Positions 1 to 9,630 of a stretch of DNA of 10,357 nucleotides are shown here, in pieces. The translations under genes were made by a program, and so were the position numbers. The DNA lies in assembly GCA_031406795.1 (NCBI GenBank), contig JANOHV010000010.1:1-10357 (forward strand). Reading direction: 5' to 3'. Under the pieces are notes generated by a model. The model worked only from the letters and a program-made list of their open reading frames with translations, did no database searches and was not told where the DNA came from. Origin of the DNA: DATDCY01 sp031406795 [NCBI: Candidatus Rokuibacteriota bacterium] (GTDB taxonomy: Bacteria > JAUVQV01). Every line of letters starts with the position of its first letter. Position 1 is the first letter of the stretch.

Positions 1-103
1 AACTGAGCACCTCGCCCAACTCATCCCTCGTGGAGATGTAGAAGATCAGTTTGCGCAGCTCGGATCCGTGCGGCACCTCCCCGTGCCTCCCCAGCGGGAG
101 CAT
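1..103 (-). CDS. Partial fourth gene of the signalling operon (N-terminus only), possible GAF/phosphatase sensor
   Basis: An open frame starts with ATG at 103-101 and runs off the left edge, giving 34 residues beginning MLPLGRHGEVPHGSELRKLI and ending in FYISTRDELGEVLS. The start overlaps the stop of the upstream STAS gene as ATGA, and a GGAGG lies 4 bases before it, so translation is probably coupled. The last half looks like the helix that commonly precedes a GAF domain (pattern 'IS...DELGEVLS'), but this is too short for a domain assignment. In partner-switching operons the gene after a STAS protein and an RsbW-like kinase is often a GAF- or PAS-linked PP2C (SpoIIE-type) phosphatase that dephosphorylates the STAS protein. 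That identity is inference from context only. The existence of a gene here is well supported; its function is not. Confidence 0.6.
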   Translation of the reverse strand, partial: MLPLGRHGEVPHGSELRKLIFYISTRDELGEVLS

Positions 104-438
104 CACGCCTCCGCCTCGGCGTCGCTGCGCAACATGCGGGCGTGGCGCTGCAGCCCCATGATCCGGAAGATCTCCTCGTTGACCGGGGTCAGCTCCGAGA
201 ACGCCAGATCGCCCCCCTGCCCCCGGACCCGCTCGATCACGCCGATCAGTATCGAGATACCGACGCTGTTGATCAGGTCGGTGTCGTGCAGGTTCACGAT
301 GAAGCGGGACACACCCCCGCCGAGCAGCCGCACGATTTCCTGCTCGAGCTGTTCGCCCGCCGCGCGGCTCAAGTACCCGCGCGTCCGGATGATCGCGCGT
401 CCGGCCGCGACCTCCGTGGTGAAGGTAAAACTAGCCAT
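103..438 (-). CDS. STAS-domain protein, anti-sigma-factor-antagonist-like
   Basis: This 111-residue protein is a single STAS domain of the SpoIIAA/RsbV size class. The fold signature is a beta strand (RFIVNLHDTDL) followed by INSVGISILIGV. The serine of NSVG (Ser58 with the start used here) aligns with the phosphorylated Ser58 of SpoIIAA (DSSG) and Ser56 of RsbV (DSTG). The usual preceding Asp is Asn. Family knowledge: such proteins bind an RsbW-like kinase when unphosphorylated and release its partner; kinase and PP2C phosphatase set their state. The ATG at 438 is preferred over the GTG at 444, because the GGAGG sits 8 bases from the ATG and only about 2 from the GTG. The start overlaps the upstream ATPase/kinase gene by 8 bases (ATGGCTAG) and the stop overlaps the next start by 4. 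Its likely partner is the HATPase domain encoded directly upstream. Confidence 0.88.
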   Translation of the reverse strand: MASFTFTTEVAAGRAIIRTRGYLSRAAGEQLEQEIVRLLGGGVSRFIVNLHDTDLINSVGISILIGVIERVRGQGGDLAFSELTPVNEEIFRIMGLQRHARMLRSDAEAEA

Positions 439-2638
439 GTTCACCCCCTCCGAGATGTTTGACCATCACGAGGCTCACCCCGTCCTCGCGCGGCTCCAGC
501 GCGACCTCGTCGACGAGCTCGCGGATTAGCGTGAGGCCCCAACCGCGGCCGCGCGCTTCCCGGCCGGCGGCCGCGCGAGGCGGCAGCGAGGCGAGCGGTC
601 GCCCCCGGTTCTCGACCCGCATCAGCAGCCGCGAGCCGCGGACCGAAAACACCAGGCGCACCCGGCCGTCGGCGGCACCGGCGTGCTCGAAGGCATTGAT
701 GCAGGCCTCGACGACGGCCATCTTTAGCCTGCCGGTGGCGAGCGCGTCGATCGCGAGGTTTTCGGCGAGCTGTTCGAGAGCGCGGGCCGCCACCAGCTCG
801 ACGTCCGCTGCGCGCGGAATGACCAGTTCGATCTCGAAGTCCGGCTCGGCCGCGGCAAGCGGGCCGGGCGGGGGAGGCACCGGCGCCACCCCCAGCAGCT
901 GCGCAAGGGACGCCAGCTGCGGCCAGGCCGAGGTCGAGAGCCGCAACCGGGCGGCCGCCAGCTCGCCCGCGCCGTCGAGCGGGGACTCCAGAATCGCCCA
1001 GCGCACGACCCGCGTGGCCGGCAACTCGCCGGCCATCTGCAGTGCGCTGATGTCGCGCTCGAACTGCGCGAGCTGCTCGCACCCGCCGCTCCCGCCCGGG
1101 AGAAAACGCACGACCCAGGCGACATCCGCCTCCGGGGCACCCGCCTCGCCGCGCAGCGCCCAGACAAGCGCGTCAACCTCCAGGCCGGGAAGCGACACGG
1201 CCTCGCCGATGCGGCCCGCGGCCACGGAGATCACCCGCGGCAGCGTCATCTCGTCGACCGCGCCGTCCGCCGCGGCGTCGCGGCGCTCACGAAATGCCGC
1301 GGCGTCGAAGCAGTCGGCAGGCACACGCTGCCCGGCCCAGGCGCAAAACATCCCGCGCAGCGCAACGCGGGCGGATTCGCGCCAGCGCCGGCGCCGGAGC
1401 GCCGGGGCGCCACGCACCTTCTCGCTAGCGAGCGACGCCACCACCGCCGCCGGCGACATTCGACCGAATTCCCGCCGGTAGAGCGCCTGCACGACATCGC
1501 GGAGCACGGGGTCCCCGTCCACGACAACGCTGGCGAAGCCGACGCGAACGACGCCGGCGCGGGTCAGCCCCGCGAGAGCCGACTCGATGTCGGCCGCCGG
1601 CTTGAGCATCAGCGCCGCGAGCCGCCCCGCGTCGAGGCTGCCCGACTCCTCGCGCAGGCAAAAAATGAGGATCTCCAGCGCGACGGCTCGAGTACGTCGA
1701 TCGGGCATGGCGCGAGCAAACAGTTCGATCCAGTAACGGGCCAGCTCGCCGTCGCAGGCCGCGGCCGCCGCCGCCCGGGCGACGTCGAGCGTGCCGGTTC
1801 CCGGCTCGCCGGCCAGGGCCCGGACCAGCGCGCCCAGGTAATAGGGCGATCCGGCCGACTCCTCCACCAGCGCCGCGACCGCGAGCTCCCCCAACTCCAG
1901 GCCGCCGATCCGCGCCAGACTCCTGGCCAGTCTCGAGGCGGCTTCGATCGACAGCGGGGCGAGACGCTCGAGGGTCAGCCGCGAGGCGGAGGCTTGCCCG
2001 AAAGTCCGCGGGACCAGATTCTCGTCCTCGAGCGTCGCGAGCAGGGGGGCGATCGAGGAGGCGAGCGCCTCTTCCGGCCAGAGCCCCTCCCCGGTCGCGG
2101 CGTCGAGATTCCCGGCGTCGTCGAAAAGACAGAGCACGCGCGTGCCGGTCAGGGCCGCGAAGCGGTGCGGCACGAGCGCCGCGCGCACGAGTGCCTCCGG
2201 CCCGCCGGGGCGCTGCTCGAGTCCGGCCAGCGCCTCCGCCAGCAGCACTCCGCCATCTCCCCAGGCCGTGCGCAACGCCCCGGCGAGCTCCACGGGGTGC
2301 AGGGGACGGTCGAGGAGCCCCGGGGCGCGTTTCTTGAAGGCCAGCGCCTGCAGGGCGAGCGCGGCGACAAGATCGCCGCCGGCAGTCGCCTGCTCGAAAA
2401 GCGAGTGGCGCAGCGGGTACCAGAAGGGAAGAATCTCACCTTCACGGAAGAGGGTCTTGTGCCACTGCCGCAGCAGTTCGGTCTTGCCCGAACCCGGCCG
2501 CCCACAAAGAACACCGCTGCGGCCAAGGCCCCGAAGCAGCGAGCGCGCCTGACGCCGCAACAGGCCCAGCTCTTCGATCCGGCCGAAGAAGCGCTCCGGC
2601 TCGAGAACCCCGGGAAACTCCCCGCCCGGCTCAGCCAC
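431..2638 (-). CDS. AAA/STAND-like ATPase fused to an RsbW/SpoIIAB-like HATPase_c domain
   Basis: The 735-residue protein has two nucleotide-binding parts. Residues about 15-280 form a P-loop NTPase: an FFGR/EEL entry motif typical of archaeal-type or Orc/STAND ATPases, Walker A GRPGSGKT (46-53) and Walker B VLCLFDD (168-174). Residues about 310-400 look like a winged helix followed by VDGDPVLRDVV, reminiscent of the 'DPxLR' segment after such ATPase domains. Residues about 410-590 are unassigned. After a proline-rich linker (588-594), residues about 605-730 form a GHKL/HATPase_c domain close to anti-sigma kinases, with N box EACINAFEHA (644-653), G1 box VENRGRP (675-681) and glycine motif GRGWGLTLI (697-705). 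The G1 Asp of SpoIIAB appears to be Asn677. It starts at GTG with GGAG 6 bases upstream, overlapping the preceding stop by 8 bases (GTGGCTGA). Inferred role: kinase and switch for the adjacent STAS proteins, gated by the NTPase part. No transmembrane segment is apparent. Confidence 0.85.
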   Translation of the reverse strand: MAEPGGEFPGVLEPERFFGRIEELGLLRRQARSLLRGLGRSGVLCGRPGSGKTELLRQWHKTLFREGEILPFWYPLRHSLFEQATAGGDLVAALALQALAFKKRAPGLLDRPLHPVELAGALRTAWGDGGVLLAEALAGLEQRPGGPEALVRAALVPHRFAALTGTRVLCLFDDAGNLDAATGEGLWPEEALASSIAPLLATLEDENLVPRTFGQASASRLTLERLAPLSIEAASRLARSLARIGGLELGELAVAALVEESAGSPYYLGALVRALAGEPGTGTLDVARAAAAAACDGELARYWIELFARAMPDRRTRAVALEILIFCLREESGSLDAGRLAALMLKPAADIESALAGLTRAGVVRVGFASVVVDGDPVLRDVVQALYRREFGRMSPAAVVASLASEKVRGAPALRRRRWRESARVALRGMFCAWAGQRVPADCFDAAAFRERRDAAADGAVDEMTLPRVISVAAGRIGEAVSLPGLEVDALVWALRGEAGAPEADVAWVVRFLPGGSGGCEQLAQFERDISALQMAGELPATRVVRWAILESPLDGAGELAAARLRLSTSAWPQLASLAQLLGVAPVPPPPGPLAAAEPDFEIELVIPRAADVELVAARALEQLAENLAIDALATGRLKMAVVEACINAFEHAGAADGRVRLVFSVRGSRLLMRVENRGRPLASLPPRAAAGREARGRGWGLTLIRELVDEVALEPREDGVSLVMVKHLGGGEHG

Positions 2639-3233
2639 GGGGAGCTCCGCTCGCCGTGCCGGCCGCGGACTGCACGAGCGCCTCGTAAACGAATTCCCTG
2701 CCGCCCTCGTCGATCGCGCGCTCTTGCCGCCGCACCAGCCGCAGCCGGTGCAGACTGCCGAGTCGGGTGCTGGAGGCGGTGAGTTCGAGTTCGAGCAGGC
2801 CCACCATCTCCCGTGCGCTCATCCGGCGCCGCTCCGCCAGCAGCAGCAGTGTCTCGCGAAGGTGAGGCGTGATCGTGCCCAGGCAGTCCCAGGACCCGTC
2901 GGGGCGCACCAGCAGCGCGGGCAGCCGCTTTCTCTCGAGGGCGACGTGGATATTCTCCCGCTGCGATTCGCCCAGACCGGTCAGCCGCAGGTACTTCTCG
3001 CCATACTCGCCGGCGATCAACCGGGTCACCAGCTTCGCCAGACATTCGTCGGCGCAGGAGAAATCGATGATGCCGACCCCGGAGAAATCCAGGGTCATGA
3101 CGCTTCCCGCCGGAAGCGAACCGAGTTCGCGGGCGAAGGAGGCCCGCGCCGCCCGCCCGGTCTCGCGGGTCACCAGATGAACGACGTCTCCGGCGACGAG
3201 TTTTCTACAAGCCTCCCTGACGACCAGTTGCAC
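2631..3233 (-). CDS. STAS-like (DUF4325-type) protein with C-terminal winged-helix region
   Basis: First gene of the operon, 200 residues. Residues about 15-105 resemble the STAS-like DUF4325 family: a strand VMTLDFSGVGIID (45-57) followed by FSCADECLAKLV (58-69), the position where ordinary STAS proteins carry the phosphorylated serine (here Ser59). Residues about 118-186 (ITPHLRETLLLLAERRRMSA through the beta pair RLVRRQERAIDEGGREFVYE) read as a winged helix-turn-helix. That would make it either a DNA-binding output of the switch or a protein-protein adaptor. The start is GTG at 3233; an in-frame TGA lies 18 bases upstream, so there is little room for an earlier start. A weak AGGGGG sits 9 bases before the GTG. 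Its stop is embedded in the start of the ATPase/kinase gene, implying coupled translation. The family call is by pattern recognition, and the wHTH call is less certain than the STAS-like one. Confidence 0.75.
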   Translation of the reverse strand: MQLVVREACRKLVAGDVVHLVTRETGRAARASFARELGSLPAGSVMTLDFSGVGIIDFSCADECLAKLVTRLIAGEYGEKYLRLTGLGESQRENIHVALERKRLPALLVRPDGSWDCLGTITPHLRETLLLLAERRRMSAREMVGLLELELTASSTRLGSLHRLRLVRRQERAIDEGGREFVYEALVQSAAGTASGAPRG

Positions 3234-5719: not shown

Positions 5720-5860
5720 GCCCGGGTCGTTTGGGAGGCCCTGACGCGCCCCGGCTGCGTTGCTCATCGCGATGCTTGTGCGGCGCACACCAGTGCGCCT
5801 CCGCGCACGCTCTTCGCTGCCTTGCCGGGACGCGCCAGGACGCTCCCAAACGACTCGGGC
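5720..5860. repeat. 141-bp imperfect palindrome with inner hairpins
   Basis: The left arm (5720-5754, starting GCCCGGGTCGTTTGGGAG) and the reverse complement of the right arm (5825-5860, starting GCCCGAGTCGTTTGGGAG) match with few differences over about 35 bases. The apex holds a perfect 7-bp stem, GGCGCAC (5782-5788) with GTGCGCC (5793-5799) around ACCA, an outer GTGC/GCAC pair (5778-5781 and 5805-5808), and a palindrome CATCGCGATG (5765-5774). It begins 13 bases after the ispB stop. It may act as a terminator, but it lacks a T-run. Its size and nested structure fit an interspersed REP- or MITE-like repeat. No target duplication is visible. Short open frames across it are a by-product of GC-rich sequence. 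Confidence 0.7.
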
Positions 5861-5902: not shown

Positions 5903-5933
5903 CCTCGCTTCGCTGGGCAATGAACCAGCGAGG
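5903..5933. other. Alternative hairpins beside structured element copy 1
   Basis: TCGCTGG (5910-5916) pairs perfectly with CCAGCGA (5925-5931) around an 8-base loop. CCTCGCT (5903-5909) can instead pair with AGCGAGG (5927-5933). Both use bases that also form the outer arm of the element at 5929-6120, so the three pairings compete. No T-run is present. The function is unknown. Confidence 0.4.
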
Positions 5934-6120
5934 CGGCTGGGATTTCACTGAGGGAAGATGCGCGGAGCCGCCGTGAAGCCCGGCGCGGTGACCGGGGCGG
6001 TCCCGCAGGGACGAAGTCTCGTTGTTTGAGCCGCAGGCGAGTTACGAGACTTCGAGCACCGGGCACCGTGACGGGCAGGCGGCGCAGACGCACGACCGAA
6101 GGGAAATCCCCGCTGCCTCG
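5929..6120. repeat. Structured interspersed element, copy 1 (possible non-coding RNA)
   Basis: This 192-bp stretch is a diverged copy of the element at 9435-9630. The longest shared blocks include the 20 bases at 5950-5969 except the last, and GCGCAGACGCACGACC near 6082-6097. The outer helix is 5929-5946 with 6103-6120. Inside are GCCGCC (5967-5972) with GGCGGC (6078-6083), GCCCG (5978-5982) with CGGGC (6072-6076), a GTCCC-GCA-GGGAC hairpin (6000-6012), and a perfect 11-bp stem 6012-6022 with 6044-6054. It ends 29 bases from the comEA stop, on its downstream side. No protein is encoded inside. The active strand is unknown. Confidence 0.8.
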
Positions 6121-9434: not shown

Positions 9435-9630
9435 GGAGGGGCGGCAGGGGATGCCCTGAGGGAAGATGCGCGGAGCAGCCGATCAGCCCGAAGGGGTGAC
9501 CGGGGCGGTCCCGCAGGGACGCAGGCTCGTTGTCTGAGCCGAAGGCGAGTTACGAGCCCGCGAGGCCCGGGCACCGCTTCGGGCCGGCTGCGCAGACGCA
9601 CGACCGATGGGCATCCCCCGCCGCCCCTCC
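9435..9630. repeat. Structured interspersed element, copy 2 (possible non-coding RNA)
   Basis: This 196-bp stretch is homologous along its whole length to 5929-6120. The outer arms 9435-9456 and 9609-9630 are inverted repeats with a single mismatch in 22. Inner helices correspond one for one with copy 1: GCAGCC (9475-9480) with GGCTGC (9586-9591), GCCCG (9486-9490) with CGGGC (9580-9584), hairpin GTCCC-GCA-GGGAC (9508-9520), and 9520-9530 with 9552-9562. It begins 14 bases beyond the clpB stop and fills most of the clpB-lysC gap. No coding sequence is seen in it. Confidence 0.8.

What the first reader, a model, noticed from the sequence alone, without database searches (positions are those of the whole stretch)
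5929..6120. Two-copy ~194-bp structured element with compensatory base changes (copy 1; copy 2 at 9435-9630)
Seen directly: the two intergenic stretches align end to end and both fold into the same plan, with a long terminal helix, two inner closing helices and two apical hairpins. At least five base pairs change on both sides between the copies: T5944-A6105 versus G9453-C9612; T5945-A6104 versus C9454-G9611; C5969-G6081 versus A9477-T9589; A6014-T6052 versus C9522-G9560; T6017-A6049 versus G9525-C9557. One pair is broken in copy 2 (A9523/C9559). Preserved pairing despite sequence drift suggests a functional RNA or folded single-stranded DNA rather than a simple repeat. The size, multi-stem plan and ORF-less copies made me think of the HEARO/omega-RNA group linked to IscB, but I cannot confirm any match.
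Basis: partly seen in the sequence, partly recalled or inferred. Interest (0 to 1): 0.75.

Follow-up and report, generated by a model that had tools for sequence, protein, structure and literature searches.

The report
Hairpin mini-transposons with conserved tip
The two repeats are copies of a short DNA element without a protein gene that folds into a long hairpin; relatives in distantly related bacteria look like miniature transposons and share the same folded tip on different arms, so the tip may do something not yet known.

Summary
Copies at 5929-6120 and 9436-9629 align end to end (83%) and fold into one plan far better than shuffles; 9 of 67 consensus pairs change on both sides. The IscB/HEARO guess fails: no Rfam match, IscB family in 1 of 17 motif-rich genomes.

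A covariance model from the two copies found a relative in 1 of 245 genomes of a Nitrospirae phylum; a genome of the same order carries 17 full-length copies. The tip, stem-TGTYTGA-(hairpin)-GAGTT-stem, recurs as a dispersed intergenic repeat in many genomes of the Geomonas phylum, with covarying arms. There, some families have terminal inverted repeats and target-site duplications (4 bp in one family, exact in 9 of 12 copies; one exact 8-bp and one exact 9-bp case in two others), one occupied/empty site, and an exchanged core at two orthologous sites. I read the window copies as non-autonomous MITE-like foldback elements whose structured core is shared across families with different ends.

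Mobility of the window copies, the transposase and the tip's function were not shown. Tip loops favour C-GNA-G triloops, hinting at folded single-stranded DNA; RNA is not excluded.

The parts
5929..6120 (+). copy 1 of the foldback element, between convergent genes (polyprenyl synthetase and ComEA-like)
9436..9629 (+). copy 2 of the foldback element, between the ClpB end and the aspartate kinase start
6000..6012 (+). first apical hairpin of copy 1 (GTCCC-GCA-GGGAC type)
   Evidence: columns 73-85
9508..9520 (+). first apical hairpin of copy 2
   Evidence: columns 73-85
6013..6053 (+). second apical hairpin of copy 1, carrying the tip
   Evidence: columns 86-126
9521..9561 (+). second apical hairpin of copy 2, carrying the tip
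   Evidence: columns 86-126
6023..6043 (+). tip motif of copy 1, TGTTTGA-(GCCGCAGGC)-GAGTT
9531..9551 (+). tip motif of copy 2, TGTCTGA-(GCCGAAGGC)-GAGTT
9435..9456 (+). left terminal arm of copy 2, 95% complementary to 9609-9630 (the right arm)
   Evidence: inverted repeat I5

Best explanation
The two copies belong to a dispersed, non-autonomous, MITE-like foldback element of about 190 bp. Its whole length is one long imperfect hairpin. The outer arms act as terminal inverted repeats, presumably cut and pasted in trans by a resident DDE-type transposase. The inner core is a structured module with a conserved asymmetric internal loop, TGTYTGA/GAGTT, capped by a small hairpin. Shown in relatives: multi-copy dispersal in intergenic DNA, terminal inverted repeats with target-site duplications in some families, one occupied versus empty site, compensatory changes in the arms, and exchange of the core between copies at orthologous sites. 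Inferred: that the window copies spread the same way, that a transposase in trans moved them, and that the tip is kept because some factor recognises it on the motif strand, perhaps as single-stranded DNA.
For: Model R1 finds a full-length relative in 1 of 245 genomes (E 3.8e-6 per genome); R2 finds 17 full-length copies in G092 and 6 at E<1e-3 in G075 and both window copies. Tip in 43 of 148 genomes of another phylum. 4 of 109 tips lie in a frame of 250 codons or more, against 3315 of 5150 random positions. Family A: inverted ends, 4-bp duplications exact in 9 of 12. Exact 9-bp duplication in L258 and exact 8-bp in L269. A 209-bp insertion in G295 flanked by ATTGT, absent in G364, flanks 93% identical over 3.4 kb on one side and 87% over 78 bp on the other. 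Core exchange at two orthologous sites. Stem beside the tip pairs across 20 genomes: 5.4 of 6 against at most 4.55 in 2000 re-pairings.
Against: Only two window copies and no held genome. No target-site duplication could be established for them: 4-bp direct repeats turn up in 422 of 500 random boundary pairs in the same search. The window and its relatives share only the tip and general plan. No transposase with matching ends was found. G351 copies show no terminal palindrome and in most other families no duplication was read. The core is missing from some copies with intact ends (L332), so the tip is not needed for transposition in that family.
Confidence: 0.7

Rival explanations
1. A functional RNA (processing site, terminator, mRNA stabiliser) scattered through genomes and kept for its transcript; mobility is secondary.
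For: Covarying arms and better consensus energy on the motif strand in 10 of 11 families; intergenic places; no recurrent protein gene.
Against: Tip loops are mostly C-GNA-G triloops (69 of 111) and GNRA tetraloops are rare (5 of 111); tip lost or swapped at orthologous sites; target duplications. Transcription could not be tested.
Confidence: 0.15
2. REP-like element moved by a Y1 (HUH) transposase, RAYT or IS200/IS605 type, which acts on hairpins in single-stranded DNA.
For: GNA loops; PF01797 in 16 of 17 motif-rich genomes against 23 of 40 without the motif, Fisher p 0.005 uncorrected.
Against: Target-site duplications, which Y1 enzymes do not make (recalled). Of 66 PF01797 matches I had 36 loci: no strict tip motif in any, one 192-nt blastn match about 0.9 kb from such a gene and short matches in four others.
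Confidence: 0.08
3. The compensatory changes are made by template switching inside hairpins (quasi-palindrome correction), not by selection for a structure.
For: The elements are long near-palindromes; the arms, not the tip, vary most.
Against: Correction should remove unpaired loops, yet TGTYTGA/GAGTT stays unpaired and constant across genomes. This was argued, not measured, and it may explain part of the arm changes.
Confidence: 0.2
4. HEARO/omega-RNA related to IscB.
For: Size, multi-stem plan and copies without a protein gene.
Against: No Rfam match; IscB family in 1 of 17 motif-rich genomes and no tip in that locus; no recurrent adjacent gene.
Confidence: 0.02

Closest known systems
Bacterial MITEs such as Correia/NEMIS, ERIC, RUP and RPE (PMC2229807: outline with abstract, and section 4 read)
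   Same: 100-200 bp, intergenic, no transposase of their own, terminal inverted repeats, target duplications, long paired secondary structure
   Different: Here the ends differ between genomes while a folded core is shared across at least two phyla and the window's lineage, and cores are exchanged within the same ends
Chunjie MITE of Geobacter uraniireducens (passages of the review PMC10969869; the original paper is not held)
   Same: 178-235 bp, intergenic, many copies, same phylum as many relatives found here
   Different: Its sequence could not be compared; it may or may not carry this tip
REP/BIME elements of RAYT transposases (PMC2817692, PMC3116915, PMC3733652: search listings with the start of the abstract only)
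   Same: Dispersed intergenic palindromes, conserved tip or tag, hairpin DNA
   Different: Much longer, target duplications, no RAYT found beside copies
HEARO / IscB omega-RNA (Rfam models; the rest recalled)
   Same: About 200 nt, multi-stem, found without an ORF
   Different: No covariance-model match, no IscB association

Membership tests
MITE | short (50-500 bp), no transposase gene of its own | tested here: met
   about 190 bp; no recurrent gene in or beside copies except antisense frames of the element itself
MITE | terminal inverted repeats | tested here: met
   window copy 2: 22-nt arms 95% complementary; relatives: family A, G338, G397; not seen in G351 copies
MITE | target-site duplication | tested here: inconclusive
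   relatives: 9 of 12 in family A, single exact 8-bp and 9-bp cases; window: not distinguishable from chance
MITE | many dispersed, mostly intergenic copies | tested here: met
   17 in G092; 4 of 109 tips in long frames; only two copies visible in the window
MITE | autonomous transposon with the same ends | tested here: inconclusive
   200 end matches in three genomes, list cut for G295; two spaced pairs followed flank ordinary genes
HEARO/omega-RNA | match to the Rfam model | tested here: not met
HEARO/omega-RNA | association with IscB | tested here: not met
   1 of 17 genomes, no tip in that locus, no recurrent neighbour
REP of a RAYT or IS200/IS605 element | copies flank the Y1 gene | tested here: not met
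   36 of 66 PF01797 matches had loci; no strict tip in them; one 192-nt match 0.9 kb away
REP of a RAYT or IS200/IS605 element | no target-site duplication | tested here: not met
   duplications in relatives

The most novel reading that the evidence does not exclude
The tip module (stem-TGTYTGA-hairpin-GAGTT-stem) is a unit in its own right. It passes between foldback elements with different ends and different transposases, is recognised as folded single-stranded DNA (GNA triloops, strand asymmetry), and gives its carriers an advantage in copying or in being tolerated, which explains its presence in at least two phyla and the window's lineage.
Probability: 0.2. Interest if true: 0.78.

Novelty: new variant of a known kind. 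Interest (0 to 1): 0.5.

Why it matters
Bacterial MITEs are usually seen as shrunken copies of one transposon, defined by their ends. Here the ends differ between genomes while the folded core stays, and at two orthologous sites the core has been exchanged inside the same ends. That separates what moves the element from what is conserved in it, and makes the role of hairpin tips in mobile repeats testable. It also warns that covarying intergenic structures found by comparative scans can be mobile repeats and not RNA genes.

Tried and rejected
HEARO/IscB: rejected. RAYT/Y1: considered because of the GNA loops and co-occurrence; not supported beside the copies and at odds with the target duplications. 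A protein encoded beside the element: clustering frames of 60 aa or more from 103 loci gave, among clusters in three or more loci, the elements' own antisense frames and common families (histidine kinase, ABC ATPase and the like, judged by reading, not by a family search). An autonomous element with family A ends: the end pattern gave 200 matches in three genomes and 0 for the reversed pattern, but the two spaced pairs that I followed flank ordinary genes, and the list was cut (12 of 62 shown for G295).

Scans that found nothing: plasmids, an 18-mer in viral contigs, a gapped pattern in genome contigs, R1 in 80 CimA loci and in 13 genomes. One search missed the window copies because I set the gap too short; mended. 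The 68 viral-contig stretches from a looser pattern, and the 80 named CimA loci, hold no strict tip.

Placing the organism: CimA and LysC trees put the window on a long branch near Nitrospirota rows, place unsure. The likeness that I thought I saw between the second window hairpin and the second repeat family of G364 was not borne out (score 28, shuffle maximum 31).

Papers: none in the library holds the 17-mers; the listings showed no description of this element.

Full report
What was checked. The window is a high-GC bacterial contig with no held genome. It carries ordinary genes: LysM-NlpC/P60, polyprenyl synthetase, a helix-hairpin-helix (ComEA-like) protein, a LeuA/citramalate synthase-like enzyme, aspartate kinase and a ClpB end. 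Its CimA and LysC are at best 66% and 64% identical to those in 80 fetched loci, nearest Nitrospirota rows on a long branch. Copy 1 lies between convergent genes, copy 2 between the ClpB end and the aspartate kinase start.

The repeat and its fold. The copies match over 186 nt at 83%. Both fold into one extended helix with two apical hairpins, as RNA and as DNA, with 0 of 200 shuffles as stable. Nine of 67 consensus pairs change on both sides. The reverse strand of each copy that I folded is also far better than shuffles (copy 1 as RNA z -6.7; copy 2 as DNA z -8.8), as expected of a near-palindrome, so folding alone does not give the strand.

Relatives. Rfam has nothing relevant in the window. 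Model R1 matched only the window itself among 80 CimA loci and nothing in 13 genomes. It then found one full-length relative in 1 of 245 genomes of the phylum of G001, a Nitrospirae genome (E 3.8e-6 for one genome). That copy is intergenic; only the tip and general plan are alike, while the arms differ and still pair. A pattern on the tip matched 4 of 14 genomes of its order: 8 copies in G092, 1 in G075, and one each in G028 and G060 that look unrelated. R2, built from nine of these copies, finds 17 full-length motif-strand copies in G092 and 6 at E<1e-3 in G075, and both window copies at E 2e-5 and 3e-4. On 20 aligned copies 95.2% of cells pair, and 18 of 62 pairs change on both sides, against 7.7 in shuffles (0 of 500) and at most 7 in slid controls. 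The alignment was fitted to R2, which leans towards that structure.

The tip is widespread. TGTYTGAGN{5,11}CGAGTT matched in 43 of 148 genomes of the phylum of G010, a Geomonas. By my tally of that list there are 179 matches, against 74 for the reversed-pattern control. Three sister genomes (G295, G364, G393) hold 47 of the 179 and 26 of the 74; many single matches are probably chance. The multi-copy genomes are the firm cases. In 80 regions fetched around selected matches, 86 copies show the plan. With one copy from each of 20 genomes (window included; some are sisters), the stem beside the tip pairs in 5.4 of 6 positions, against a mean of 3.87 and a maximum of 4.55 in 2,000 re-pairings; G403 (2 of 6), G390 and G302 (4 of 6) are weak. 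Of 109 tips, 4 lie in a frame of 250 codons or more, against 3,315 of 5,150 random positions. Eight of these loci have no Rfam match at gathering scores.

Mobility. Family A in G364, G295 and G393 has sharp ends with terminal inverted repeats. Four-base direct repeats flank it exactly in 9 of 12 copies read; re-pairing left and right flanks gives a mean of 1.7 and a maximum of 8 in 20,000. With a strict end pattern 7 of 8 copies are exact (L282 and L332 there are one insertion in two genomes). In G338 the ends are CAGTAGTGTCCGG/CCGGACAGCACTG, with an exact 9-bp duplication in L258, 7 of 9 in L265 and none seen in L259. In G397 they are GTAACTATTCAGC/GCTGAACAGTTAC, with an exact 8-bp duplication in L269 and 7 of 8 in L271; the remaining copies of both were unclear or cut by contig ends. 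I did not establish ends in the other families. A second type in G295 (L312) is a 209-bp insertion flanked by ATTGT, absent from the orthologous place in G364 (L281); the alignment misplaced this gap, so I read it from the sequences. G351 copies show no terminal palindrome, so not every carrier of the tip is a foldback MITE.

Core exchange. L282 (G364) and L332 (G393) share flanks and duplication, but L332 has an unrelated core. L288 (G364) and its G295 orthologue (L328) show the same, with a nearly identical replacement core and the same borders. Gene conversion between dispersed copies that share arms is the simplest reading. It shows that the tip is not needed for the element to persist at a site.

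DNA or RNA, and which strand. Of 111 tips 81 have triloops, 73 of them GNA and 69 C-GNA-G; 14 have tetraloops, 5 of them GNRA. C-GNA-G occurs in 14 of 20 genomes. Such hairpins are about seven times denser within 100 nt of a tip than 400-1,500 nt away (37 of 20,055 against 64 of 241,118 positions). Copies within a genome are not independent, so these are descriptive. GNA triloops are known for great stability in DNA (recalled), so I lean to folded single-stranded DNA. RNA consensus energy favours the motif strand in 10 of 11 families, and one-sided changes favour G.T over A.C on that strand (132 to 66), but only 79 to 72 when the structure is taken from the other strand; 85 of 102 copies were kept, the rest dropped as under 60% identical to their consensus.

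What moves it. The IscB idea fails. PF01797 is commoner in motif-rich genomes: 16 of 17 against 23 of 40 (the 40 picked from 105 without a match), p 0.005 uncorrected, 0.010 without G092 and G075. But it is not beside the copies: of 66 matches I had 36 loci; none holds a strict tip, one has a 192-nt blastn match about 0.9 kb from the gene and four have short matches. Target duplications point to DDE transposases, of more than one kind if the 4-, 8- and 9-bp lengths hold; none was identified.

Conclusion. The feature is real and best read as a MITE-like foldback element with a structured, widely shared core. For the window copies mobility is inferred from relatives that share tip and plan; no duplication could be told from chance there. 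Template switching in hairpins may make part of the paired changes, but the unpaired loop that stays fixed across genomes argues for recognition of the tip. The new points are the shared core on different ends and the exchange of cores at orthologous sites. I found no description of this element in the listings searched.

Noticed in passing
window 5726-5854: Another long foldback hairpin (arms GTCGTTTGGGAG/CTCCCAAACGAC) about 75 bp before copy 1; single-stranded DNA on the - strand folds with z -6.1, 0 of 200 shuffles as stable. Only one copy in the window; it may be a second foldback repeat.
   Followed up: partly
L288 2821-2977: A second repeat family with ends TCGTAAAAAGTC/GACTTTTTACGA, with dozens of matches in G295 and G393 and absent from the orthologous place in G295: another mobile foldback repeat.
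   Followed up: partly
L332 505-666; L328 1330-1530: Alternative core (runs like GTTTACAGTTNACAGTTCGCAGTTAACCG) inside family A ends, in place of the TGTYTGAG core, at two unrelated sites.
   Followed up: partly
L151 1269-1320, L172 1395-1417, L178 1393-1415, L187 1792-1814, L189 1393-1415: In G092 a second, shorter repeat with the same tip (stem CATTTCGGA.../...TCCGAAATG) often lies within about 150 bp of the long element in the opposite orientation.
   Followed up: no
L290-L299: In G299, G335 and G308 the tip element is followed by a hairpin such as CTTACTTTTCTTTGGCC...GGCAAAGAAAAGTAAG.
   Followed up: no
window 1-3233: A STAS protein, a 735-aa protein with AAA and HATPase domains, and a 200-aa protein without a Pfam match follow one another on the - strand, like a stress or anti-sigma type signalling unit (role from recall).
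   Followed up: no
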